64,000 bases of DNA, taken from contig JAUNBG010000006.1 of NCBI GenBank assembly GCA_030527205.1, positions 62,001-126,000 on the forward strand, written 5' to 3'. Of this stretch, positions 44,167 to 60,596 are shown piece after piece; position 1 is the first letter of the stretch, and every line of letters starts with the position of its first letter. The translations under genes were made by a program, and so were the position numbers. Under the pieces are notes generated by a model. It made no database searches and was not told the DNA's origin. It worked only from the letters and a program-made list of their open reading frames with translations. This DNA comes from Planctomycetia bacterium (lineage in GTDB: Bacteria > Planctomycetota > Planctomycetia > Pirellulales > Thermoguttaceae).

Positions 44167-44635
44167 GAGTTGAAGGGGGAAGGGGGAAACTGTTTCTCCT
44201 TCTCTCTATCAACTCTCAATTATCAACTTAACTAAAAGCAGTCTTTTTCCTCTTCAAAAATGGAATCGAAGAGTCGGGCTGTTTGAAAGGCGGAAGTCGC
44301 TTCAGGGACAAAGGTTGCGGAAACAAATGTTGCGCGAACGAAGCGGAATCTTTCGAAAAAGGAACGAACATTCCCAATGGCAACGATTTGTTGTCAATTG
44401 CCAAATCTTTGGGGTATTCATAAAACAAAATTCAAAACATAAACAATAAATAACTAAAATTTTCAAAAATTTGATTTCTCGCGCAATTATCCTGATACAA
44501 TTAAATTAAAATTTGGAAAAAATTTCAATATTTTATTGCAAAAAGAAATAAATCGAGTATATTATATAGAGCATACGAAAATCATGCGACAAATATTTTT
44601 ATAAAATCCTGTTCTTTAATTTTATTTTGGGAGAA
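44167..44635. other. AT-rich intergenic region at the accessory-region border
   Basis: About 470 bases. A short heptamer array lies at 44209..44229. A 66-codon minus frame (44228..44428) starts with TTG and is not convincing. The rest is very AT-rich, with TATATTATATAG near 44557 as a possible promoter -10 area. Confidence 0.45.
44209..44229 (+). repeat. Heptamer repeat array, three units
   Basis: TCAACTC, TCAATTA and TCAACTT lie head to tail 43 bases after the stop of the preceding gene. The same heptamer family occurs at 31738 and 52767. Confidence 0.6.
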
Positions 44636-44857
44636 ATGATGAATTTTTGCGAAATGTTAAATTGGGGGGGGGGGTAAGATAGTCTCTCGTGAAAATGATG
44701 AATTAACCCCTAAAAACAATTTTTACGTCGAATCTCGCAAGCAATATTCTTTTGTTCTTGCCTATAATCTTAATGTGAATTACGCACAAAATTTGCTCTT
44801 CGCTCTTTTTCTCTTCTTCAAGCATAAAAGGCAAATACTCTTTCAGTTTTGTTAATG
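44636..44857 (+). pseudogene. Short reading frame split by an 11-G tract
   Basis: After GGGAG, tandem ATGs (44636, 44639) open MMNFCEMLNW, then the run of 11 G (44664-44674) and an immediate TAA. If the tract had 10 or 13 G, the frame would continue as GKIVSRENDELTPKNNFYVE and on to a TAA about 60 codons later, ending with a hydrophobic stretch (NLLFALFLFF). This may be a phase-variable small gene, a dead gene or an assembly error in the homopolymer. No homologue is recognised. Confidence 0.35.
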
Positions 44858-45049
44858 ATTTCTCATTCTTAACGAAATTTAAGGAACGATAATTTATTAA
44901 CGCTTTATTATTCTTGTTTTTTTGTTTTATACGATTTTATTTATCAGATATCAATCTATTACAAATTTTCTTTCATAAAACGTTTGTCAATTTTTTACTT
45001 TTATCGACAAAGGAGATTTATTATGAGTCTTGGTTACCGGGTTTTGTGG

Positions 45050-45306
45050 AGCGGGCTAATCTTTCCTGTCCTACGCGTGTGGGAATCCAATATTTAGAAT
45101 CACAAGGCTTTTCATTTTGGGGGACTGTTGGGTTCTTCATTATGTTCGCCTTGTTTGCCTGCGATTTTTATCCGGCGCTTTCGGCGAACAATATCGGACG
45201 GCTGCGGCTTTGAAGAATTCGACGAGTTCTTCGAAAACCGTGCTATGATCGCTTTAAGTTTTTGAATTTCCGCCCAGTTCGGCGATGAGTTTGTCTTTTG
45301 GGTCAT
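45050..45306 (-). pseudogene. IS66-family transposase remnant
   Basis: On the minus strand the frame from 45306 reads EIQKLKAIIARFSKNSSNSS then KPQPSDIVRRKRR and a degenerate GKQGEHNEEPNSPP. KNSSNSSKPPSSDIVKP...GGQPGH is the N-terminal signature of IS66-type TnpC transposases. Only about 60 residues survive; the catalytic part is gone. It lies about 200 bases before terD, so the locus has been reached by mobile elements. Confidence 0.7.
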
Positions 45307-45514
45307 CTATACGATTTAAATCGGCTGCTATCAATCGATTTGTTGACTGTTTTTCGGACTTTTTTCATTCGATGGAAAACTTTCGATACAATCGTTAATG
45401 CCGCCGATTGTTTCTGGTATACAGTGGTTTGAGAATCGCGGTGTCTCTTTCGCGTGAAAGGGAAAATTCGCCGTGAACGGTTACTTTTTACATATTTAAG
45501 AAAGGATAAGTTTG

Positions 45515-46090
45515 ATGGCAATATCGTTGGTAAAAGGGGAAAATGTTAAGTTTTCTTCAGGGTTAAAAGTTGTGCAGGTCGGTTTGGGTTGGACCGTTCG
45601 AGAGACAAACGGCGCTGATTTCGATCTTGACGCGTGTTGCTTTCTTGTCGGTGAAAACGGTAAAGTACGCAGCGATGACGATTTCATCTTTTATAATCAG
45701 CTCAAATCGAAGTGCGGAAGTGTTGAGCATATGGGCGACAATCAGATCGGCGGAGACGGCTGTTCGGACGCCGAAATGATCATGGTTCATCTTGAAAAAG
45801 TGCCGACCGACGTTGTGCGGCTCATTTTTACGGTTGCGATTCACGAAGCTCGCGAAAGAGGGCAGAATTTCGGTATGGTGAACGCGGCCTTTATTCGTGT
45901 GGTCGACAGTGAAACGAAAGAGGAAATCGCCCGTTTTGATCTTTCTGAAGACGCCAGTACGAATACGTCGATGATTTTCGGCGAAATCTATAAACGAAAC
46001 AACGAATGGAAATTCAAGGCGATTGGTCAGGGATTTAATAATGGACTTTTAGAAGTCGCGCAGGGATTTGGTGTTCACGTCAGCAACTGA
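45515..46090 (+). CDS. terD: TerD-family calcium-binding stress protein
   Basis: A 191-residue TerD domain: MAISLVKGENVKFS, GLGWTVRETNGADFDLDACC, SDDDFIFYNQLKS, HMGDNQIGGDGCSDAEMIMV and IRVVDSETKEEIARFDLSED. The acidic clusters are those that bind calcium in characterised TerD. TerD-type proteins act in tellurite, phage and oxidative stress responses, often with TerY-like VWA proteins as here. The ATG at 45515 is preferred over the TTG just before it; AAGGATAAG lies upstream. It starts a plus-strand series of signalling genes. Base use is richer in GTG, CTG and ACG codons than the housekeeping genes, fitting acquisition. Confidence 0.93.
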   Translation: MAISLVKGENVKFSSGLKVVQVGLGWTVRETNGADFDLDACCFLVGENGKVRSDDDFIFYNQLKSKCGSVEHMGDNQIGGDGCSDAEMIMVHLEKVPTDVVRLIFTVAIHEARERGQNFGMVNAAFIRVVDSETKEEIARFDLSEDASTNTSMIFGEIYKRNNEWKFKAIGQGFNNGLLEVAQGFGVHVSN

Positions 46091-46122
46091 AGAGAGTAAC
46101 CGAAAAAGGAAAAAGGGGTTTC

Positions 46123-46767
46123 ATGAGAAAATTACCTGTATATCTTTTAATTGATATTTCCGGATCGATGATGGGGGATCCTATTGAAGCTGTAAAAAAT
46201 GGGATGCAGATCATGCACTCCGCCCTTCGAAAAGATCCTTACGCACTGGAATCCGCTTATATCAGCATTATCACATTCGCTGACGATGTTGTGCAAGTTG
46301 TTCCTTTAACAGAAGTTGCAAGTTTTCGGCCACCAACAATTTCCGCCGGGGGAGGGACTTCACTTGGCGGAGCGTTGAGCAAAGTTTACGAATGCGCCAC
46401 GAGGGAAGTTCAAAAATCAACCTCCTCAGAAAAAGGGGACTGGAAACCGCTGGTCTTTATCATGACCGACGGCGTTCCGACCGATGATCTGACGAAAGGG
46501 CTGAACATATTTAAACAGTATAAATGGGGAATTGTGGTTGCCTGCGATGCCGGAAACGGCGCTGGATTGTCCGCGCTTCTGCAGATTACTCAAAACGTTG
46601 TCTCGCTGGATATGACGGATTCAAGTTCGATTCAGGCCTATTTCAAGTGGGTCTCTTCGAGTATTTCGGCGAGCAGTCAAAAAGTGGAAGACGCCAATTT
46701 TGACGACAGCAGCGATTTGAACGAACTTCCCCCGCCTCCGCCGGAAATTTCCCTGATTATACCGTAA
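46123..46767 (+). CDS. TerY-like VWA protein 1
   Basis: A 214-residue von Willebrand A domain starting MRKLPVYLLIDISGSMMGDP. DISGS supplies the metal site, completed by the threonine in GGGTSLGG and the aspartate in MTDGVPTDD. TerY-type proteins partner TerD and kinase/phosphatase pairs and probably assemble complexes through metal-bound acidic ligands. The C-terminal Pro-rich end (LPPPPPEI) is shared with the second copy. It begins 32 bases after terD, consistent with one transcript. Confidence 0.93.
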   Translation: MRKLPVYLLIDISGSMMGDPIEAVKNGMQIMHSALRKDPYALESAYISIITFADDVVQVVPLTEVASFRPPTISAGGGTSLGGALSKVYECATREVQKSTSSEKGDWKPLVFIMTDGVPTDDLTKGLNIFKQYKWGIVVACDAGNGAGLSALLQITQNVVSLDMTDSSSIQAYFKWVSSSISASSQKVEDANFDDSSDLNELPPPPPEISLIIP

Positions 46768-46986
46768 CCTTAGATATTGTGACCATTGCGAATAATTTGC
46801 GCCTGGTATTTCGTTCCGTCCTCGTTACTCGCCGACCTTATTTTTTTCGCTTTTTCCCCGTTTATCTCTGGGAAACAGGGGAACCGTTTAACGAAAAAAC
46901 TCATAAGGAATCGGCATACTTCGGATAATGGGGAGCAAGTACTTAACAAAAAAATCAAATAAAATTATTGTACATTGGTAAGAATT

Positions 46987-47619
46987 ATGAGACGCCTTCC
47001 TATTTATATTCTCTTAGATACATCCGGCTCTATGCAGGGCGAACCGATTGAAGCGGTCAAGACCGGTCTGTTGTCGTTGTTATCAAGTTTGCGGAAAGAC
47101 CCATACGCGCTGGAAACAGTTTGGGTGAGTATTATAACCTTCGATTTAGAGGCGGTCGTTCGAATCCCCTTGACGGAAGTGAGCGAGCTGACGCTCCCGG
47201 AAATTCCGGTTCCGGAGACGTCTCCCACTAATTTGGGAAGCGCAATCGAATTGCTCTGTGATCAATATCGGAAGGAAATCGTTATCTCAAACGCTCAACA
47301 CAAAGGGGACTGGTTGCCGCTGGCGATTATCATGACCGACGGGGCGCCGTCCGATACGCAGCATTACAACCGAATGCTGGAACAGTTGAAAAATTACAAA
47401 TTTGCTCGAATTATCTGTTGCGCCGCAGGTCCAAAAGCAAAAGTTGAACCGCTGAAATGTATGACAAAAGACGTTTTTACGCTCGACACAATGGACAGCG
47501 GCACGTTCTCAAAATTTTGGGTTTGGGTTTCAACTGCCGTCGAACGTCAAAGTCAGTTGGTCGATTTGCAGCCGAATGAACTTCCTCCGCCCCCAGAAGA
47601 AATCAAGTTAGTGATATGA
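46987..47619 (+). CDS. TerY-like VWA protein 2
   Basis: A 210-residue VWA domain (MRRLPIYILLDTSGSMQGEP) paralogous to the gene before it. The metal site DTSGS, SPTNLG and MTDGAPSD are intact, and the end ELPPPPEEIKLVI matches. I start at the ATG at 46987 because the family begins MRRLPIY; a TTG 12 bases earlier is less likely. A 220-base gap separates it from copy 1. Its stop overlaps the start of the phosphatase gene by four bases (ATGA type), so these two are translationally coupled. Confidence 0.92.
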   Translation: MRRLPIYILLDTSGSMQGEPIEAVKTGLLSLLSSLRKDPYALETVWVSIITFDLEAVVRIPLTEVSELTLPEIPVPETSPTNLGSAIELLCDQYRKEIVISNAQHKGDWLPLAIIMTDGAPSDTQHYNRMLEQLKNYKFARIICCAAGPKAKVEPLKCMTKDVFTLDTMDSGTFSKFWVWVSTAVERQSQLVDLQPNELPPPPEEIKLVI

Positions 47620-49442
47620 AAATTGATTCATTCTATTGGTTACCTTATTCATCATTATTACTTTTGTTCGTTTTATTTTCATTCCTTTTGTTCGTTCTTT
47701 GGAGAAAACGTAAAATGAATCCCTCCCCCCAAAAAAATAGATTTGATACGACGTCATTAAATAAAAACAATATTAACCCCAAAAAGTCGCCCCCTTACGT
47801 TAACGACCCGTTGAAAGAAGGAAAAAATATTCCGTCTTGTGACCCAAGAAAAACCGTGCGGTCTAACCCCGGGTCGGTCGATTTTTCCAAGCAGACACAA
47901 AACGTGCCCCCTATTTCTGCGCCTCCAAAAGAGAGCAGAACAGACATTGCCGAAGAGGCGTCGCTTTGGTTGAACGTTGAATCTTCTCCGTTAGACAACT
48001 GTTATCAAATGCTGGAATCTCTTCGAAACCTGAAATTACATAATGGAAAAGTCGGTGAACCTTACTCCTGTGACTGTAATTTATTTCCTAACCGACATAA
48101 TTTGAACAAAATCGTAAAGTTGGATATCTTAAAGGAACCTTTTCGAGAGTACGGTATTTCTGTTTCCTATGAGGATGGTTATCTGAAATTTAGGGGCGAC
48201 CCCCACAAACCGTTCAGCGGTTCTCTGAAGATCAGCGTCGAGGCAGGGGTTTTAGATGCTGAGACGACAGCTCGCTTTTCTGGCTTACAAGGGGGGAGAA
48301 AAATCGAAATTTACGATAAATACGATAAAATTGAAGTTTGTGGTAGATTCGAAGGACGTTTTGAAGCAAAAGATTTGTTTCAAATTCAATTTTATATTAT
48401 GCCCGACCCGTGGACTTTATGGAAAGAGTTGCCCCCTCCCCAGGACGCTCCTTATCAAAAAGAGGATACCGCTTCTGCCTGCATGACTTTTGCCGGAGAG
48501 GCAAAATCGGTTTGGGCGGCCAGTCGACGGGGACGTTCGCACGCCCAAGACGCAAAATTTCGCGATGATCACTTCGCGATTAAAATTTCCGAACAATCTG
48601 AAAACGCCTGGAATATCTTCGCTGTGGCTGACGGTGCCGGTTCAGCCCGTTATTCGCGGGAAGGATCAAAAATCGCCTGTGAAACCGTAACGCGAGAATT
48701 ATCTGAACTTTTGAATAGCCCAGAATATTCCGTTCAAATTGATAAAGAAGTTGGCTGCATAACAGAACAAACCGCAGAGCAAACCGCAGAGCAAACGCCG
48801 GGTGAATTTGGAGAAATGAAAATCGTTTCGGAAACGATGACAAGAGCTTTTTATACAGCACTTTACGATGCGTGGACTGCGATTCACAAAGAAGCGCAAA
48901 AAGTTAATGATCGCAAAATCCAGGATTTCCATACAACGCTTTTATGTGCAGCAGTCAAAAAATATCCGGAATTTTGGGCGATCGCATCGTATTGGATCGG
49001 CGACGGGGGATTGGCTGTTTATCAGCCGAACAACAACAACGGCGTTCTGGTTTTGGGGAAACCGGATGGCGGGGATTACGCTGGACAAACTAAATTTTTC
49101 ACAGTAACAGAGGAAATCAAAGCCGATCCGTTCCGACAACGTTTTTGTTTTTATCGACTTTCTGATTTCAGGGCTCTTTTTCTGATGACCGACGGGATTA
49201 CGGATCCCTTTTTTCCAGCAGAATCGAAACTGCCTGACGTTACGTGTTGGAATAAATTTTGGAATGAGACACTTCCGAAAGAGTTTCCCGGGTTTTTTGA
49301 ATCAACAACATTGGAAGAGAAGGAGAGTGCCCTATTGCAGGGATTGAATTTTAAAGTGGCTGGAAATCATGACGACCGCACATTAATGATTCTCGCCAAT
49401 CCGCAAGATTTGAAAGCCGATAAAGCGGGAGAAGTTCAATGA
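47616..49442 (+). CDS. Membrane-anchored PP2C-type protein phosphatase
   Basis: A 608-residue protein with one N-terminal membrane helix (about 8-29), a proline-rich linker, and a beta-sandwich-like region (about 130-270; GEPYSCDC, GYLKFRGDPHKPFSGS). The PP2C domain (about 297-600) has metal and catalytic motifs ADGAGSA (about 337), FHTTLL (about 438), IGDGG (about 461), LMTDGITD (about 525) and HDDRT (about 585). It should dephosphorylate Ser/Thr. A 12-base repeat (GCAGAGCAAACC-type, 48764-48799) encodes EQTAEQTAEQT between helices. It overlaps the kinase start by four bases, so kinase and phosphatase are made together. This is the TerY-P arrangement. Confidence 0.92.
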   Translation: MKIDSFYWLPYSSLLLLFVLFSFLLFVLWRKRKMNPSPQKNRFDTTSLNKNNINPKKSPPYVNDPLKEGKNIPSCDPRKTVRSNPGSVDFSKQTQNVPPISAPPKESRTDIAEEASLWLNVESSPLDNCYQMLESLRNLKLHNGKVGEPYSCDCNLFPNRHNLNKIVKLDILKEPFREYGISVSYEDGYLKFRGDPHKPFSGSLKISVEAGVLDAETTARFSGLQGGRKIEIYDKYDKIEVCGRFEGRFEAKDLFQIQFYIMPDPWTLWKELPPPQDAPYQKEDTASACMTFAGEAKSVWAASRRGRSHAQDAKFRDDHFAIKISEQSENAWNIFAVADGAGSARYSREGSKIACETVTRELSELLNSPEYSVQIDKEVGCITEQTAEQTAEQTPGEFGEMKIVSETMTRAFYTALYDAWTAIHKEAQKVNDRKIQDFHTTLLCAAVKKYPEFWAIASYWIGDGGLAVYQPNNNNGVLVLGKPDGGDYAGQTKFFTVTEEIKADPFRQRFCFYRLSDFRALFLMTDGITDPFFPAESKLPDVTCWNKFWNETLPKEFPGFFESTTLEEKESALLQGLNFKVAGNHDDRTLMILANPQDLKADKAGEVQ

Positions 49443-50929
49443 GCAATGAAATCAATCCAAATGATATCGTAAAAACGAAAGCGAAAGACGGGTCGAACGT
49501 CGAATTTGTCTTTAAGGACCCGAAACAGGGAGGCGTCAAAGACGTCTATTTTGCGCCGGATCGAAGCGAAGTGGTCGCATTTTTTCGGAATCCTCTTGAC
49601 GTTTCCGGTCGAGAACGCATCGAAAAAATAGTAACCGATTATCGGAGTAGAATTTACGAACAGGCCGGGGGGGAATACTGGAAAGAATGTTTTTGCTGGC
49701 CGGAAAAAATTGTGGAATACAACGGAATGACGGGAATCGTCGTTCCGACTTATCAAAACTGTTTTTTCTTCCAGACAGGAAATCTCGCCGGAACGGAAAA
49801 AGAGGGAAAATGGTTCGCTTCGCCCAAAATTTATAATCGGTTTGTTCCGATGGAAGAAAAGGGATCTCTCTTAGGTTATCTGCGACTCTGTCTTAAACTC
49901 AGCCGTGCCACGCGTCGTCTTCATGCTGCCGGATTGGCGCATAGCGATCTGTCATACAAAAACTGTCTTGTGGATCCGCAAAGCGGAAATGCCTGTATTA
50001 TCGACATTGATGGTCTGGTCGTCCCAGGCGTTTTTCCGCCGGATGTGATTGGAACGCCTGATTTTATCGCGCCGGAAGTCGTGGCCTCGACGGGACGGCA
50101 GCGGGAAGACCGGATTTTACCGTCTCAAGCGACAGACCGTCATGCGCTGGCGGTTCTTATTTACCAATATCTTTTTCATCGGCATCCGTTACGTGGCGGG
50201 AAGATTTACAGCCAGGACAACGACGTTCAGGAAAAAATGGAAATGGGTGAAAAGGCTCTTTTTATCGAACATCCAAATGACAAGAGCAACCGTCCCATAC
50301 TTGATGACAACGACGATATCTGTATGCCGTGGGTTGACGTCGAAAAGATTCCGTATACAACCGCCGGACCGATGTTAAAGACTCTTTTTGATCGCGCTTT
50401 TATAGAAGGTCTGCATGACCCGGCACAACGTCCAACGGCAGACGATTGGGAAGACGCTATTGTTAAAACCTCGGATATGATTCAACCTTGCTCGAATGAA
50501 AATTGCGTTAAAAAATGGTTCATTTTTGATAACTCAACCCGTCCCGTTTGTCCTTACTGCGGAACGCCTTACAAAGGAATTTTGCCGCTGCTCGATTTTT
50601 ATTCCAGCCGTAACGGCAAAGATTATCGCCCGGACAATCATCGCTTGATGGTTTTTAGCGGTCAGTCGTTGTATCAGTGGCATACGAATCGTTCCGTAAT
50701 TCCGAACGAAAAAATCAAAAAGGAACATACAACGCGAGTTGGTTATTTTTCCTTTTTTAAAGGAAAATGGCTGTTTGTTAATCAAACGCTTACTTCAATG
50801 AAAAATCTGACGACCGATCAGCCGGTTCCAATCGGAACAGGAGTGGAACTTGTGGATGGGCTGAAACTCCAGTTCTCGTCTGACACAAACGGACGAATTG
50901 CCTATATTCAAATTGCGAAAGGAACGTAA
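49439..50929 (+). CDS. Atypical Ser/Thr protein kinase with zinc ribbon
   Basis: A 496-residue protein kinase-like domain (about 20-345) with catalytic loop HSDLSYKNCL (about 166), metal motif IIDIDG (about 188, in place of DFG) and APEV (about 211). The expected ATP-lysine position (VVAFFR, near 45) lacks lysine, so ATP binding may be altered. A zinc ribbon follows (CSNENC...CPYCG, about 350-375), then a C-terminal beta domain that may read phosphopeptides. These kinases pair with TerY and PP2C proteins and probably phosphorylate a partner. The gene is coupled to the phosphatase by a four-base overlap. An IS5 remnant lies just downstream. Confidence 0.9.
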   Translation: MSNEINPNDIVKTKAKDGSNVEFVFKDPKQGGVKDVYFAPDRSEVVAFFRNPLDVSGRERIEKIVTDYRSRIYEQAGGEYWKECFCWPEKIVEYNGMTGIVVPTYQNCFFFQTGNLAGTEKEGKWFASPKIYNRFVPMEEKGSLLGYLRLCLKLSRATRRLHAAGLAHSDLSYKNCLVDPQSGNACIIDIDGLVVPGVFPPDVIGTPDFIAPEVVASTGRQREDRILPSQATDRHALAVLIYQYLFHRHPLRGGKIYSQDNDVQEKMEMGEKALFIEHPNDKSNRPILDDNDDICMPWVDVEKIPYTTAGPMLKTLFDRAFIEGLHDPAQRPTADDWEDAIVKTSDMIQPCSNENCVKKWFIFDNSTRPVCPYCGTPYKGILPLLDFYSSRNGKDYRPDNHRLMVFSGQSLYQWHTNRSVIPNEKIKKEHTTRVGYFSFFKGKWLFVNQTLTSMKNLTTDQPVPIGTGVELVDGLKLQFSSDTNGRIAYIQIAKGT

Positions 50930-50974
50930 TGCGAAAATTTGTTATGCGGGTTAGGAGCGTCTCAATCGTTTGAA

Positions 50975-51180
50975 GAAAATGGCTTTACGCCGCAGATTAG
51001 CGAACGGTCCTGTCGAAATCATCCGTTGTCCGAGAAACAGAAAAAATTGAATCGAAAAAAATCGCGCCAGCAAATCCGGATTGAACACATTTTTTCGTTT
51101 TACTGCGGTTTGGGAAACCTCTTATTGTTTTCCTGTAAATTTCATGACAAAATTATATCACATTTTGAAACGAGTGTAAA
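50975..51180 (+). pseudogene. IS5-family transposase C-terminal remnant
   Basis: In frame with 50939, the translation includes CRNHPLSEKQKKLNRKKSRQ followed by QIRIEHIFSF. This matches the C-terminal IS5 pattern R-HPL-E-QK--NR-KS--RARVEHIFGF that carries the last catalytic glutamate. Only about 60 residues are recognisable and no start or ends are visible. It separates the kinase gene from the third VWA gene, so an insertion probably split a continuous operon. Confidence 0.72.
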
Positions 51181-51231
51181 ATCAATTTCTCTATTGCGTC
51201 AACGTGACCTGTCAAAAGGAATTAACCATAT

Positions 51232-51354
51232 ATGAGAAAATTTATTACAAAATTGTTTTCTTACGAAATGGAAATCGGTTTGTTGACGGCAACGATAATT
51301 CCGGTGGCCAGGCAGGGACGAAAACTCGCATTTTGGCTTGGTTGCGGACAATAA
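51232..51354 (+). CDS. Possible 40-residue open frame, unassigned
   Basis: An ATG at 51232 opens MRKFITKLFSYEMEIGLLTA, running to a TAA at 51354. AAAAGGA lies about 11 bases upstream, a marginal ribosome site. It sits between the transposase remnant and the third VWA gene and resembles nothing known; it may be debris. Confidence 0.25.
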   Translation: MRKFITKLFSYEMEIGLLTATIIPVARQGRKLAFWLGCGQ

Positions 51355-51420
51355 ATGTTGTCTGTTTTTTCAAAAATACTTCAAGAATATCATATCAAAA
51401 TTATCAGGAAAGGATTGTTT

Positions 51421-52449
51421 ATGAGACGACTTCCCATTTACTTTGTTTTAGATTGTTCAGAATCGATGGTCGGCGAAGCGTTTGACGGTATGAAAAAGGG
51501 GCTCAAGTCACTTTTGGCTGAATTGACCCGTGATCCGGCTGCGATGGAGTTGGCCTATCTCAGTGTCATCTCGTTTGCATCGTCTGCCAAACAGGTGGTT
51601 CCGTTAACCGAATTGTGTCAGTTTCGAGTTCCGGAATTGACTTTAGGGTCGGGAACAGCCCTCGGTGCGGCATTACAGCTTTTGGAGAACAAAGTTAATC
51701 AGGAAGTGGTTCGCAGCACGATGACTCAAAAAGGGGATTATAAGCCGATTGTCTTTTTGATGACGGATGGAGAACCGACGGATTCATGGCTTCCGGTTGC
51801 CGGACGCTTGATGCATAATCATCATATACAGACGGTGGCCGTCGGCGTTGGTCCCGATGTGAACCTTCAAAGCCTGATGAGAATTTCGGAGAACGTCATT
51901 CATGCCCGTGTGCCGGAAGAAGAAAATTTTTCCCGATTTTTCAAGTTTGTGAGCAGTTCCGTTTCGACCGCCAGTCAACAGATTGATTCCGGCAACGAAG
52001 GAAAAATCGATTTACGCAAACTTCCTGAATCCGATAGTATTGTTATCGTGGACAATACGACTCCCATTCCGGAAGTAATTCCTGGTCGTTTGCTTTTCCT
52101 GCATCTGAAATGTTCCAGTAGTGACAAGTATGTGTTAATAAAATATGAGAAACGAGAACAATCCGGGTTCTTTTCCAGTAAAACATATTATGAACTGGTC
52201 GGCTCATTTCCTGTCGATGATTTCGACTTTTCAGGAAATGATAAGAAACTGACAATCTCGACGGAACAACTTCAGGGCGATTTTATCTGTCCTTACTGCG
52301 GTAACGAGTCATGGGCTCGTTGCAGTTGCGGCAGTATTTTCTGTTGTTGCGAAATTATCAACAACCAAGCCTGGTTGGAATGTCCTTGGTGCAACCAAAC
52401 AGGCTATTATGCGCCGTCCAGTTTTAATCTTGGCGGCGGGGCTGGTTGA
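51421..52449 (+). CDS. TerY-like VWA protein 3 with C-terminal zinc ribbon
   Basis: A 342-residue protein: VWA domain (about 1-200) starting MRRLPIYFVLDCSESM, with metal site DCSES, GSGTALGAALQ and MTDGEPTDS. A second beta domain (about 225-290) follows, then a cysteine-rich ribbon (CPYCGNESWARCSCG, CCCEII, CPWCNQTG) at about 295-335. TerY of the tellurite system likewise carries a C-terminal ribbon. The start is the ATG at 51421, preceded by AGGAAAGG. This is the most diverged of the three VWA copies and may carry the target-binding role. Confidence 0.92.
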   Translation: MRRLPIYFVLDCSESMVGEAFDGMKKGLKSLLAELTRDPAAMELAYLSVISFASSAKQVVPLTELCQFRVPELTLGSGTALGAALQLLENKVNQEVVRSTMTQKGDYKPIVFLMTDGEPTDSWLPVAGRLMHNHHIQTVAVGVGPDVNLQSLMRISENVIHARVPEEENFSRFFKFVSSSVSTASQQIDSGNEGKIDLRKLPESDSIVIVDNTTPIPEVIPGRLLFLHLKCSSSDKYVLIKYEKREQSGFFSSKTYYELVGSFPVDDFDFSGNDKKLTISTEQLQGDFICPYCGNESWARCSCGSIFCCCEIINNQAWLECPWCNQTGYYAPSSFNLGGGAG

Positions 52450-55191: not shown

Positions 55192-55713
55192 ATGCAAAAG
55201 TTGAAAGTCTATCTGGATACCAGCGTATTCGGTTATTTGTACTTGACAAAATCTTCGGAAATAATGCAAATAACCCGGGATTTTGTTGAGTTACTTAAAA
55301 AAGATGATCATTATATATTGTGTACGTCTATAATAACGATACGCGAAATTGATTGTGCCCCGGAACCTCTTAAATCATATTTAAAGTGTGATTTGAGTAA
55401 ATTAGGAACTATGCTATTAAAAGAGTCTAAAGAAATCAATCAATTACAAGCCGAATATCTTGAAAATAAACTTTTGACTCCCAAATCAATTGATGATTTA
55501 ATGCATATATCCTTTGCCGTTTATTATCAGTGTGATATAATCGCAAGTTGGAATTTCAAACATTTTGTTAATGAAAATACAATTTATCATCTTAAAAGAA
55601 TAAACCAACGTCTTGGATTGCCAATTGTTGATATTGTGTCTCCAAGAACATTTATGGAAAGGTTGACTGATGGAAACGGAATGGATGACATTATTAAGAG
55701 AAATCCGTCTTAA
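55192..55713 (+). CDS. PIN-domain protein, VapC-like ribonuclease
   Basis: A 173-residue PIN domain starting KVYLDTSVFGYLY, with the first acidic residue in YLDTS. REIDCAP supplies the second, and LTPKSIDDLMHISFAVYYQC plus IASWNFKHF the further acidic and polar sites (Asp in IDDLMH, then SWNFKHF). PIN domains are metal-dependent RNases and are often toxins. It differs from typical VapC (about 130 residues) in its longer C-terminus. The start of the next frame overlaps its last 44 bases. Promoters and an inverted repeat lie upstream. The toxin role is inference from context. Confidence 0.88.
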   Translation: MQKLKVYLDTSVFGYLYLTKSSEIMQITRDFVELLKKDDHYILCTSIITIREIDCAPEPLKSYLKCDLSKLGTMLLKESKEINQLQAEYLENKLLTPKSIDDLMHISFAVYYQCDIIASWNFKHFVNENTIYHLKRINQRLGLPIVDIVSPRTFMERLTDGNGMDDIIKRNPS

Positions 55714-56710: not shown

Positions 56711-57835
56711 CTATTTAATCACGTTTGAAATGAAATAGGCAACAGCCAGAGCGGAAACAAGTCCAAGGGAAACATAAAAAAGCAACTTGATAACAAACTT
56801 CGTTGTAAACGACTTCAGTTTTTCCTCGACATATTGTTCTATTTCAGAAGAAACAGGCAAATTCAGAGATTGAATTTTAATGTTATATTCATTGTAAAGG
56901 TTTTTCAATTCTTCTTTTGTAGAGCAAGAATCGATGTTCTGAATAAAATCTTCTGTTGCGCTATTATATATTGAGATGTTTTTGCGATCTTCCGCAATTA
57001 CAGTTATCCAGTTTTTCGCTTTTTGAACAATGATTTGCGTGTTCGCCGGAGGAATTAAATCCGTTTTGGACGCAATACATGAATCCCATTTTTCCAAACA
57101 TTCTTTGACTTTCATTTCGTCAGAGTCATACAAGGAATCTTGAAGCTCTTTTCCAATCGAACAAAGTTCTTGATAAACCTTTTCGTTTTCGAGTTTTGAA
57201 ATTTCCTTGGCACATTTTTTGGCTAAAGAAGAAGCAGCCCATTTCGGACGGCGACTTAGAATCTGGCTGAGTTTTTGCATTTCATCTAAGTTGCCCTCTT
57301 GCAGTATTTCTCTTCCTTCTGTTTCCAAAATGGAGAAATAATTTGTGTCAAAAAGATCGATATCTTGTTTCAATAAATTATTTTTTGGTTCAAGATTTAA
57401 TATTTGGCACATGATACCGATTCGATATAAAATCGGAGCGCCAATCAAGGAATAAAATCTTAAGCGTTCATATAAAGGTTTTCTTTCTTGATATTTATGA
57501 CAGGCATCTTTAACAGCCAAATAATAGTCGATAATGATTTCCTCGGGGGCTTTTAATCCCAAAGGGCGAATCATTTTTCGCCAATCATCCAATTCTGGAA
57601 AGAGTAACGCATTTATGAATTCGAACAAATTGGGCTCAATGCATACAAGACGTTCCATTTCAGAATAATTTTGCTTAAGCATGAAAAAGTAACATTTTTT
57701 CAAGCGTTGATTGGCTTGTTCGCATAATTGGGCATATTCTTCCGCTTTGCTACTGATTTCTTCTTCCGTAACAGCAACTTTAGTAATGACCAGAAGTCTC
57801 AATTCATCGATAAAGAGTTGATAGTTTACGGCCAT
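56711..57835 (-). CDS. Tail-anchored helical protein of the GTPase operon
   Basis: A 374-residue almost all-helical protein with a C-terminal membrane helix (about 347-370, LLFYVSLGLVSALAVAYFI). The body contains heptad-like, Glu/Lys/Leu-rich segments that may form a helical bundle. No domain is recognised. AAGGAG lies before the ATG, and the start overlaps the preceding gene's stop by 10 bases, so it is coupled to the GAP1-like gene. It may be the membrane effector or anchor of the GTPase system; that is inference from position only. The 3' end abuts an IS5 remnant. Confidence 0.88.
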   Translation of the reverse strand: MAVNYQLFIDELRLLVITKVAVTEEEISSKAEEYAQLCEQANQRLKKCYFFMLKQNYSEMERLVCIEPNLFEFINALLFPELDDWRKMIRPLGLKAPEEIIIDYYLAVKDACHKYQERKPLYERLRFYSLIGAPILYRIGIMCQILNLEPKNNLLKQDIDLFDTNYFSILETEGREILQEGNLDEMQKLSQILSRRPKWAASSLAKKCAKEISKLENEKVYQELCSIGKELQDSLYDSDEMKVKECLEKWDSCIASKTDLIPPANTQIIVQKAKNWITVIAEDRKNISIYNSATEDFIQNIDSCSTKEELKNLYNEYNIKIQSLNLPVSSEIEQYVEEKLKSFTTKFVIKLLFYVSLGLVSALAVAYFISNVIK

Positions 57836-59217
57836 ATAAAATCTCCTTGAAACGGAATAGAAAACAGAACATTAGATATTGGCTTGTTTTGGGGTTGAAT
57901 GGGATTATCAGCGCAATGTAATGAAACGGAAGACTTTGGGATTTGAATAGATTGTATTTGATGAGAAATAGAATGGTTCAATTGACAGGAAGTAAAAAAC
58001 GAAAGCAAAAGAACAAAAAGAATAACAACAATGGCGATCCAAATAAAAAGAATCAGCGAATAAAATATTTTATTGAATAAAGACTTTTTATTCCTTTTAA
58101 GTTTCAATGACGCTGTTTTTAATTGATCAAAATGATTTTGACCAGGAATCGGCAACGGTTTTGGAATCCTGATGTCGTTGGGGGCGATTTCTGGTTTCAA
58201 TTCGCCAAATGTATTATCCAAATCGTCAGAATACAATTCTTCGTAAGGATTATTGCCATAATCAAGAATACCCGTCAAATTTGAACTCTGTGATTGTTGC
58301 TGAGTCGGTTCTGTAAGAGGAAATTTTAAATGAGCGGAAGGAATGTTCAAAATTTTTGTTTCGTAAATGGAAACGGGATTATTCTCTGTTTTTTCAGGTT
58401 TCTCTACTTTCTCAAAACCGTAGGAATCAAGTCGAATAGAACCAGGAATCAGTTCGGGAGTATGTTGAAAATATTCCGGAAGGGATATGGTCAGATTGAC
58501 AATATTGGCATTGGGAAACCAGGTTCTTTCGATATTCATCGATTCTTTGTAAACTCCCTGCCAAGTACATAATATATCGACAGGGAATTTTATGAAACAA
58601 GTACAAAACGGGATTTTCCAACGATCTTTCGGAACAAGAAGCGTCAAAGATTCGTCAAACAGTTGCAGAAGCGGAATATTTTGATCAATGACGACATAAG
58701 TTTTTCCTTTTTGTTTGAGCTTTTCAAAAAGCGAAAGACTCCAATAAGGATCGCCACTCCATTTTTGCCATAAAGGACAGGAAACCGTTTTTCGTGTTCC
58801 TGTTTCTTGAAAAAAAGACTTGTCTCGAAGCGGAAGATATTTGGGACCGGAGTCCCATTTGCTCAAAAAAGGAGCCGACATGAGAAAGGCCGCAGGGCCA
58901 CAGGAAGGCAATTCGTCTTCGGTCAACACAAAATGATGCGCTAAATAATTGGTTCGACCAGTATAATCGAAACCGCAATCGACTATTCTCGATAAAACAT
59001 GATAAGTCTGTGAACCAGACGAAAACCAAAGATGAAAGTAAACGCTTGGAGAAAACGATTGATCTTCTTCTGTATTGCGCCGAGGATAAAGGCTGAGATG
59101 TTCCAAACGCTGAATCAGTTGCGAACTCATTCCTTCCGTATGAGCTATTGTGCTGAAACCGACTCGACCGGAAACAAAATTTTTGTCTGAAGAAGTATAA
59201 ATTGATTCAAAAATCAT
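57826..59217 (-). CDS. GAP1-like protein (GAP1-N2 type) with C-terminal membrane helix
   Basis: A 463-residue protein whose first half matches the GTPase-associated protein 1 pattern as I remember it: YTSSDKNFVSGRVGFSTIAH, a SYHVLSR-like phrase (TYHVLSRIVDCGFDYTGRTN) and NYLAHHFVLTEDEL. The middle holds PLRDKSFF and WQKWSGDPYWSLSLFEKL. A polar linker leads to one membrane helix (about 385-408) and a 55-residue tail. GAP1 proteins accompany TRAFAC-type GTPases in predicted bacterial conflict systems. I start at the ATG at 59217, since GGGGAAAG lies just upstream. It follows the GTPase by 14 bases. Confidence 0.8.
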   Translation of the reverse strand: MIFESIYTSSDKNFVSGRVGFSTIAHTEGMSSQLIQRLEHLSLYPRRNTEEDQSFSPSVYFHLWFSSGSQTYHVLSRIVDCGFDYTGRTNYLAHHFVLTEDELPSCGPAAFLMSAPFLSKWDSGPKYLPLRDKSFFQETGTRKTVSCPLWQKWSGDPYWSLSLFEKLKQKGKTYVVIDQNIPLLQLFDESLTLLVPKDRWKIPFCTCFIKFPVDILCTWQGVYKESMNIERTWFPNANIVNLTISLPEYFQHTPELIPGSIRLDSYGFEKVEKPEKTENNPVSIYETKILNIPSAHLKFPLTEPTQQQSQSSNLTGILDYGNNPYEELYSDDLDNTFGELKPEIAPNDIRIPKPLPIPGQNHFDQLKTASLKLKRNKKSLFNKIFYSLILFIWIAIVVILFVLLLSFFTSCQLNHSISHQIQSIQIPKSSVSLHCADNPIQPQNKPISNVLFSIPFQGDFIWP

Positions 59218-59231
59218 GTCTTTCCCCAATT

Positions 59232-60596
59232 TTATTCAAGACTTGATGCCATAATAGTTTGTGTGTCGGATGAACAGTCTTGTGAACCGGATCTGCCAAA
59301 CGGAATGATATTTCCTATTTTAGTCAAGGCGTAAAATAAAGGAACTTCAGACCAGATTGGATCGATGGAATTGACGTCGAATTCCAGTTTTTGAACGCCC
59401 TGCTCCATTGTTGTTTCAATCGGCGAACAACCAGTTGCGCTGACGGGAAAATAGGTGACGTCGCTGGACAGATTCTCAATGGCCATAACAAACTCTGGAA
59501 CATATTGGAACAGAATATCTCGAAGAAGATTGGACATATTTTGAATCCGTTGCGGTTTGACCGCATACATATTAACATTGTCGTTGACATTATTGCTCTG
59601 TATTCGCCCATAAGGCGGGTTGAAATTGGCGTCGCCCAAAAAAGTTTTCCAAACATCTGCTTTCGTTGCAATAACAAAAACCGGATTATTGACTTTTTGT
59701 GACGGATCCAGGCCTTTGGACTTTTTAATGCGATGAATCGTTTCGCTTAAAATGGAGTGTTGCAGCAAGGAATCAACCTTTTTTTCAAGTTGCGGATCTT
59801 TGGAATATTGACGGCATACAGTTCGAATGGGAACATATTGAAGCGGATCAAATATATAAAAAAAGACGCCGCATTGTTTCAAATGATCCGTTACCGGTTC
59901 CAGCGAACTTTCGCGTCCGGGAAGAAAGCTTTCCCCGGCGTTATCGTAAAGGCAAAGGACAGAAGGATTTATGCTTTTTGCAAAAATATGATTTTGCGAC
60001 GGCGTCAATGTAAACATATAAGGTTGAGGATAACGCATAATCTGTCCGTTGACAATTGATGTATTATAACCTTCGCCATATTCGCGGGTTTTTTCAATAA
60101 TAACTTTATTAACCCCTTCTTTTCTTAAAAAGAGCGTCTGTTCATAATCATTGATCTGATCGTTCATTTTCGCGTGAGTATCAATGACAGAAGTCTGAAA
60201 ATGGGTCGATAACATAATTTTAGCCCGCCTGAGCATGGAAGCTAAAAAATATGATTTTCCAGAAGACGGAGCGCCAATAATGGAAATAAAGGAAACGGGA
60301 AACTCAATTAAATCCCTCGGAAGGATGAGATGACAGTTCGGACAGGCGTAATCCCGACAGACAATTCCCTCCGGATCCAATGGATGACCTTCTATATCGA
60401 ACCGGCAAGGCAAAAAACGCATTTGAACATCCGTTCCGAGTTGTTCATCTCCGACATATTCTGTCGCAACAGCAATGGACAACAACTCATGCGGCTTAAA
60501 GGTCGTCCAACAATGCGGACAGGTTATCTTTTTTCGAAACTTGAGAAGTTTGGAAGAAAGTTCTTTTTTATAATCAGTAATACTCGTTTTAATCAT
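59232..60596 (-). CDS. TRAFAC-type GTPase with N-terminal zinc ribbon
   Basis: A 454-residue protein. Cysteine pairs CPHC (about 25) and CRDYACPNCH (about 80-89) form a zinc ribbon. The GTPase domain follows: Walker A/P-loop IGAPSSGKS (about 98-106), G3 DNAGES (about 217) and G4 TKAD (about 308). FFYIFDPLQYVPIRT and FVIATKADVW are typical. GTPases of this type sit next to GAP1-like genes in predicted NTP-dependent conflict systems. It is the first gene of a three-gene minus operon, followed closely by the GAP1-like gene. It could be a nucleotide-driven switch sensing invasion or stress; the trigger is unknown. Confidence 0.88.
   Translation of the reverse strand: MIKTSITDYKKELSSKLLKFRKKITCPHCWTTFKPHELLSIAVATEYVGDEQLGTDVQMRFLPCRFDIEGHPLDPEGIVCRDYACPNCHLILPRDLIEFPVSFISIIGAPSSGKSYFLASMLRRAKIMLSTHFQTSVIDTHAKMNDQINDYEQTLFLRKEGVNKVIIEKTREYGEGYNTSIVNGQIMRYPQPYMFTLTPSQNHIFAKSINPSVLCLYDNAGESFLPGRESSLEPVTDHLKQCGVFFYIFDPLQYVPIRTVCRQYSKDPQLEKKVDSLLQHSILSETIHRIKKSKGLDPSQKVNNPVFVIATKADVWKTFLGDANFNPPYGRIQSNNVNDNVNMYAVKPQRIQNMSNLLRDILFQYVPEFVMAIENLSSDVTYFPVSATGCSPIETTMEQGVQKLEFDVNSIDPIWSEVPLFYALTKIGNIIPFGRSGSQDCSSDTQTIMASSLE

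What the first reader, a model, noticed from the sequence alone, without database searches (positions are those of the whole stretch)
45515..52449. TerD with three TerY-like VWA proteins, PP2C phosphatase and an atypical kinase in one plus-strand locus
Six signalling genes lie on one strand with four-base overlaps linking VWA2, phosphatase and kinase. All three VWA metal sites are intact. TerD plus TerY-P (VWA, PP2C, kinase) is a predicted stress or conflict module whose targets are not known. Three VWA copies, a membrane-anchored PP2C and the ribbon-tailed third copy make this a rich version.
Basis: partly seen in the sequence, partly recalled or inferred. Interest (0 to 1): 0.72.

Follow-up and report, generated by a model that had tools for sequence, protein, structure and literature searches.

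The report
TerY-P phospho-signalling cassette with TerD
This is a known kind of bacterial stress-signalling gene set (a kinase, its opposing phosphatase, three metal-binding adaptor proteins and TerD), shared with tellurite-resistance plasmids; its unexpected part is a kinase that a recent survey listed as inactive but that may have moved its ATP-binding lysine to a new place.

Summary
TerD, three VWA proteins, a PP2C phosphatase and a kinase lie on the plus strand, with two ATGA overlaps and all named domains confirmed. It is a TerY-P module and not an unusually rich one. Two short VWA proteins plus one VWA-TerY_C protein is the standard set across six phyla and on enterobacterial ter plasmids (2,332 plasmid records carry the kinase). 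Each window VWA falls in its own old clade.

Specific to this locus: the genome has one TerD but no TerC or TerB, so classical tellurite resistance is unlikely. The PP2C carries a membrane anchor found only in gut-type relatives. The cassette is patchy in its order and absent from a congener.

(1) In all 41 distinct orthologous kinases the third glycine of the ATP loop is lysine, while beta-3 has no conserved lysine. HxD, Asn and DxD are invariant. This resembles the relocated lysine of WNK kinases. A 2025 survey lists the Yersinia pestis family member as a pseudokinase. (2) In relatives the cassette adjoins one of three unrelated cation-transport families, never two together (17 of 33 loci), pointing to a metal- or calcium-linked phospho-switch. 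Function is inferred; geometry and activity were not tested.

The parts
45515..46090 (+). TerD-family protein (191 aa), the only TerD domain in the genome
   Evidence: PF02342 E=2.7e-74; one match in the whole genome
46123..46767 (+). VWA1, short TerY-like VWA protein with intact MIDAS
   Evidence: PF00092 8.1e-11; clusters with VWA1 of other phyla
46726..46752 (+). conserved C-terminal tail motif LPPPPPEI of VWA1
   Evidence: same tail on most VWA1 and VWA2 proteins of the relatives
46987..47619 (+). VWA2, short TerY-like VWA protein with intact MIDAS; stop overlaps the PP2C start (ATGA)
   Evidence: PF00092 4.2e-10; in VWA2 clade of 32 rows, support 100/99
47581..47604 (+). conserved C-terminal tail motif LPPPPEEI of VWA2
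47616..49442 (+). PP2C phosphatase (608 aa) with N-terminal membrane anchor, low-confidence linker, small domain with an Ig-like signature, and C-terminal PP2C domain
   Evidence: PF13672 3.5e-36; AF2 model, PP2C part mostly pLDDT above 90, best PDB match PPM1A; active-site residues invariant in 26 homologues
47646..47714 (+). predicted transmembrane helix of the PP2C (residues 11-33), followed by WRKRK, so the catalytic part is predicted cytoplasmic
   Evidence: 19-residue hydropathy 2.39; segment also in L032, L033, L040 and L042, 5 of 40 homologues
49439..50929 (+). TerY-P kinase (496 aa): kinase domain, zinc ribbon, C-terminal beta domain
   Evidence: AF2 pLDDT 91.4, pTM 0.91; Foldseek to protein kinases E=2e-10; orthologues in six phyla and 2,332 plasmid records
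49538..49540 (+). codon of Lys34, at the third-glycine position of the ATP loop, start of beta-2: proposed relocated ATP-binding lysine
   Evidence: 41/41 distinct orthologues; relatives of the same architecture have Gly here
49583..49585 (+). codon of Phe49, in beta-3 where the usual lysine is expected (register uncertain by up to 2 residues)
   Evidence: F 28, Y 13 of 41; no lysine at positions 44-49 in any orthologue
50489..50560 (+). zinc ribbon C351-C356-C371-C374 of the kinase
   Evidence: all four Cys 41/41
51421..52449 (+). VWA3, VWA domain with C-terminal TerY_C metal-binding domain
   Evidence: PF00092 2.1e-17 and PF15616 3e-18; VWA-TerY_C clade

Best explanation
This is a TerD-linked TerY-P phosphorylation cassette, orthologous to the terY-terX-terY-terY(TerY_C)-PP2C-kinase half of the IncHI2 ter cluster. 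Most likely it is a reversible Ser/Thr phospho-switch driven by divalent metal or calcium. The VWA proteins, through their MIDAS sites and shared LPPPPPE tails, and TerD act as metal-dependent adaptors or substrates. The kinase adds phosphate, using Lys34 in the ATP loop in place of the usual beta-3 lysine. The PP2C, anchored at the membrane in this lineage, removes it. The output in relatives is probably control of membrane cation transport or envelope stress. Here no TerC, TerB or linked transporter is present, so the switch acts alone or on a transporter encoded elsewhere. Shown: gene content, domains, orthology, conservation of catalytic residues. Inferred: activity, substrates, signal, output.
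For: Domains and order. Same cassette in 36 loci: PP2C in 34, adjacent to the kinase in 32, short VWA in 31, VWA-TerY_C in 30, TerD in 22, contig ends limiting some (gene orders). Same set on IncHI2 and IncHI1B plasmids, kinase about 54% identical. Kinase fold; HxD Asp170, Asn175, DxD Asp189 and all zinc-ribbon Cys 41/41. PP2C fold and catalytic residues. Cation-transport genes in line with the cassette in 17 of 33 GTDB loci and never two kinds together: Na/Ca exchanger in 7, TerC-like DUF475 in 6, P-type cation ATPase in 4. TerD, TerC and TerY-P were proposed earlier as a metal-sensing phosphorylation system (Anantharaman 2012, as cited in PMC11090510), and ter genes are induced by Zn and Mn (PMC12054061).
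Against: No substrate or signal is shown. The window itself has no linked transporter, so the metal-output reading rests on relatives. TerY-P modules also occur inside restriction-type systems (CoCoNuTs) and a related OB-fold version is antiphage (PMC11090510), so defence is a live alternative. 491 nt separate the kinase and VWA3 genes, so VWA3 may be under separate control.
Confidence: 0.6

Rival explanations
1. It is an antiphage defence or conflict module: phage-triggered phosphorylation stops growth or turns on an effector.
For: A TerY-P-like module with an OB-fold kinase is antiphage (Gao 2020) and TerY-P sits in Type II/III-A CoCoNuT operons (PMC11090510). IncHI2 ter genes give phage inhibition (Whelan 1995, cited in PMC12054061). 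Patchy distribution: 5 of 197 genomes in the order match, one only over part of the kinase, and a same-genus genome lacks it.
Against: No nuclease, helicase or other effector in the window locus; no PADLOC model beyond weak generic kinase hits. No close orthologue in phage records or viral contigs. In relatives the linked genes are cation transporters, not effectors.
Confidence: 0.25
2. It is a tellurite-resistance determinant like the ter operon.
For: TerD with terY/terX-type neighbours orthologous to the plasmid cluster.
Against: TerC and TerB are not found in the genome ([quoted passage not shown] The genome is about 90% complete, so a missed copy is possible.
Confidence: 0.05
3. The kinase is a true pseudokinase, a scaffold that does not transfer phosphate; the PP2C acts on other proteins' phosphates.
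For: No beta-3 lysine; listed as pseudokinase family Yegi1 in PMC12599244 Table 1; the alpha-C Glu at the position of the relatives is E or D in only 24 of 41.
Against: Asp170, Asn175 and Asp189 are 41/41, and a lysine appears at an ATP-contacting position in 41/41. Only two extra tandem copies (L041, L042) show real decay, with Asn at the DxD metal-binding position. The PP2C partner keeps all catalytic residues.
Confidence: 0.2
4. The kinase is active but Arg50, at the end of beta-3, does the job of the usual lysine.
For: Position 50 is R/K/H in 41/41, next to the strand.
Against: It is His in the IncHI2 and IncHI1B plasmid kinases, whereas Lys34 is never replaced. An ungapped alignment to the relatives puts their lysine opposite Phe49, and no alignment made puts it at 50.
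Confidence: 0.15

Closest known systems
TerY-P triad (TerY VWA, PP2C, STK) of Anantharaman, Iyer and Aravind 2012
   Same: All three components, TerY_C domain, kinase with C-terminal zinc ribbon, TerD neighbour
   Different: The original paper is not held here. No DNA-processing genes in the window; PP2C is membrane-anchored
IncHI2/IncHI1B plasmid ter cluster (VWA-TerD/TerX-VWA-TerY_C VWA-PP2C-'InaA family' kinase)
   Same: Six orthologous components; kinase about 54% identical, same three VWA classes
   Different: No terZABCDEF or terW, no ATP-grasp/phosphoribosyltransferase/StiP genes here; TerD precedes VWA1; VWA-TerY_C lies after the kinase rather than before PP2C; plasmid PP2C has no membrane anchor
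E. coli K-12 yegL-pphC-yegI
   Same: VWA, PP2C and kinase in one locus
   Different: YegI has the usual beta-3 lysine (VAKIY) and third glycine, and a different C-terminal part (membrane segments and HhH, own knowledge) instead of zinc ribbon plus beta domain
Yegi1 family of bacterial STK pseudokinases (PMC12599244)
   Same: HSDLSYKN catalytic loop and VVA- with no lysine in beta-3 match exactly; DID here against DVD
   Different: Called a pseudokinase there; the ATP-loop lysine is not mentioned for this family
WNK kinases
   Same: Lysine moved from beta-3 to the ATP loop/beta-2 (WNK fact from PMC12599244 and own knowledge)
   Different: No close sequence kinship shown; would be independent; beta-3 residue is Phe/Tyr rather than Cys; anion sensing unknown
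GAP1-N2 DO-GTPase systems with kinase-ZnR, PP2C, VWA (PMC7159879)
   Same: Same kinase architecture with PP2C and VWA; a GAP1-N2 locus lies 4 kb away on the other strand
   Different: That theme is described as actinobacterial; adjacency is not seen in relatives and the genome has two more GAP1-N2 loci

Membership tests
TerY-P triad | TerY-like VWA protein with MIDAS | tested here: met
   three VWA proteins, Pfam above cut-off, MIDAS intact
TerY-P triad | PP2C phosphatase with intact metal-binding residues | tested here: met
   PF13672 3.5e-36; invariant D318, D339, G340, D463, D526, D586, D587
TerY-P triad | Ser/Thr kinase with C-terminal zinc ribbon, next to PP2C | tested here: met
   kinase fold, four Cys 41/41, ATGA overlap with PP2C
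TerY-P triad | phosphorylation and dephosphorylation between components | not testable with these tools
   needs biochemistry
ter tellurite-resistance determinant | TerB and TerC present with TerD | tested here: not met
   no PF03741 or PF05099 match in the 90% complete genome
WNK-like lysine relocation | no conserved lysine in beta-3 | tested here: met
   0 lysines at positions 44-49 in 40 kinases
WNK-like lysine relocation | invariant lysine in ATP loop at third Gly/start of beta-2 | tested here: met
   K34 41/41; start of strand 34-38 in the model
WNK-like lysine relocation | lysine side chain points to the ATP phosphates and the kinase is active | not testable with these tools
   model coordinates not available to scripts
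CoCoNuT Type II/III-A | CnuB/CnuC GTPase-nuclease and CnuH/CnuE genes beside TerY-P | tested here: not met
   none among the neighbouring genes scanned
PADLOC defence system | match to a defence-specific model | tested here: not met
   only weak generic kinase hits and one weak PP2C hit

The most novel reading that the evidence does not exclude
The TerY-P kinase family, filed as pseudokinase Yegi1 and annotated on thousands of plasmids as 'LPS kinase InaA', is an active bacterial kinase that has independently moved its ATP-binding lysine from beta-3 into the ATP loop, as WNK kinases did, and it drives a metal-linked phospho-switch whose membrane output is any of three exchangeable cation transporters.
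Probability: 0.5. Interest if true: 0.72.

Novelty: new member of a known kind. Interest (0 to 1): 0.5.

Why it matters
The module itself is known, but its kinase sits on over two thousand sequenced plasmids and in several phyla with no activity reported in the papers read here, and one survey calls it dead. If Lys34 is the ATP lysine, that verdict reverses, a second lineage with a WNK-type active site becomes available, and two point mutants can test the role of the phosphorylation arm of the ter cluster. The recurrent, mutually exclusive cation transporters give a concrete output to assay.

Tried and rejected
Local VWA expansion: rejected, the three copies belong to three old clades. Kinship to E. 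coli YegI as a close orthologue: rejected, YegI keeps the usual lysine. Functional link to the neighbouring GAP1-N2 locus: suggestive by distance, but not seen in relatives and two other copies exist. Phage-borne origin: no close orthologue in phage records or viral contigs. Structured RNA in the gaps: no Rfam match. Promoter/terminator scan: counts above shuffles but not decisive.
Full report
Observation. Pfam confirms TerD, three VWA domains, PP2C, a weakly matching kinase, and a TerY_C domain on the third VWA protein. Starts are better placed at 46987 (VWA2) and 51421 (VWA3). Gaps of 32, 219 and 491 nt mean only VWA2, PP2C and kinase are translationally coupled.

Not a rich version. The kinase has orthologues at 51-68% identity in 33 loci from six phyla and at about 54% in 2,332 plasmid records. 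Gene orders in these loci repeat TerD, VWA1, VWA2, PP2C and kinase, with VWA-TerY_C either before PP2C or after the kinase. Over 36 loci, PP2C is present in 34 and adjacent to the kinase in 32, a short VWA in 31, VWA-TerY_C in 30 and TerD in 22, with contig ends lowering the counts. The IncHI2 plasmid of Citrobacter and the IncHI1B plasmid of Klebsiella aerogenes carry the same six components next to each other. In a tree of 93 VWA domains the window's three copies fall apart: VWA2 in a clade of 32 (100/99), VWA3 in the TerY_C clade of 35-37 (99/98 and 100/94), VWA1 in the remainder. So three VWA copies is the ancestral layout.

What is particular to this locus. The genome (90% complete, 3.95 Mb) has one TerD domain and no TerC or TerB match. 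Because terB, terC, terD and terE were essential for tellurite resistance on pTE53 (PMC8123226), the locus is unlikely to be a classical tellurite determinant. The PP2C has a predicted transmembrane helix followed by WRKRK, which places the phosphatase on the cytoplasmic side by the positive-inside rule (own knowledge). The helix occurs in only 5 of 40 PP2C homologues, the window, three planctomycete bins and one deltaproteobacterial bin. The cassette is patchy: 5 of 197 genomes of the order pass 1e-30, one of them over only part of the kinase, and a same-genus genome lacks it. The kinase tree groups the window with planctomycete bins of other families and with deltaproteobacterial bins, which suggests transfer.

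The kinase. AlphaFold2 gives a confident model (pLDDT 91.4, pTM 0.91) that matches protein kinases in the PDB (E 2e-10), with beta-2 at 34-38, beta-3 at 44-49 and helix C at 55-73. In 41 distinct orthologues Lys34 is 41/41, Asp170 (HxD), Asn175 and Asp189 (DxD) are 41/41, and the zinc-ribbon cysteines are 41/41. No orthologue has a lysine at positions 44-49; position 49 is Phe or Tyr in every one. More distant kinases homologous over nearly the whole length (residues 14-483, hhalign E 1.4e-36) have the usual GxGGxGEVY loop and VAVK/ALKW strand. All alignments put their third glycine opposite Lys34. The beta-3 register is less sure: an ungapped reading puts their lysine at Phe49, hhalign at Ala47. 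This is the pattern of WNK kinases, whose lysine moved to beta-2 (PMC12599244). The same paper lists the Yersinia pestis member (Yegi1: VVA-, HSDLSYKN, DVD) as a pseudokinase and does not mention the loop lysine for it. A text search for a bacterial WNK-like kinase found nothing in the held library, but subscription papers and the 2012 and 2020 primary papers are not held.

Metal link. In 17 of the 33 GTDB loci a cation-transport gene lies in line with the cassette, at 6-556 nt: a Na/Ca exchanger (7 loci, typically after the kinase), a TerC-like DUF475 protein (6 loci, upstream of TerD or VWA) or a P-type cation ATPase (4 loci, after VWA-TerY_C or TerD). No locus has two kinds. The families were called by Pfam on representatives and extended by sequence clustering. 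With MIDAS sites in the VWA proteins and metal induction of ter genes (PMC12054061), this favours a metal- or calcium-linked switch. In the window no such gene is adjacent; a relative of the P-type ATPase lies elsewhere in the genome at 46% identity.

Verdict. A genuine member of a known kind (TerY-P with TerD). The claim worth testing is that its kinase is active through a relocated lysine. I put that at about one in two: conservation is complete, but no geometry or biochemistry could be done here.

Noticed in passing
window 56711-60596, - strand: A GAP1-N2 protein (PF20013, 1.8e-21) with a P-loop GTPase-like protein (no Pfam match) and a membrane protein: looks like a DO-GTPase conflict system; two more GAP1-N2 loci exist in the genome.
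   Followed up: partly
L041:642-2147 and L042:3999-5504: Deltaproteobacterial loci carry a second, tandem kinase copy that keeps the zinc ribbon but has Asn at the DxD metal position (and Arg for Lys34 in L042): a kinase/pseudokinase pair.
   Followed up: partly
L033:8725-10491 (similar long VWA ORFs in L034, L036, L038): Planctomycete relatives encode a VWA fused to a WD40 beta-propeller (domains checked in L033 only) downstream of the kinase.
   Followed up: partly
L043, L049, L050, L055, L056, L060 / L045-L048, L053, L057, L064 / L036, L040-L042: Three unrelated cation-transport families (DUF475/TerC, Na/Ca exchanger, P-type ATPase) are linked to the cassette, one per locus.
   Followed up: yes
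window 46726-46752 and 47581-47604: Most short VWA proteins of the system end in LPPPPPE[IV]-x-x-V; its binding partner is unknown.
   Followed up: partly
window 55192-55713, + strand: A weak PIN-domain protein (E 0.007, below the Pfam cut-off) stands alone between the two signalling loci.
   Followed up: no
window 44170-45510: About 1.3 kb upstream of terD has no ORF of 100 aa or more and contains a run of about ten G near 44665.
   Followed up: no
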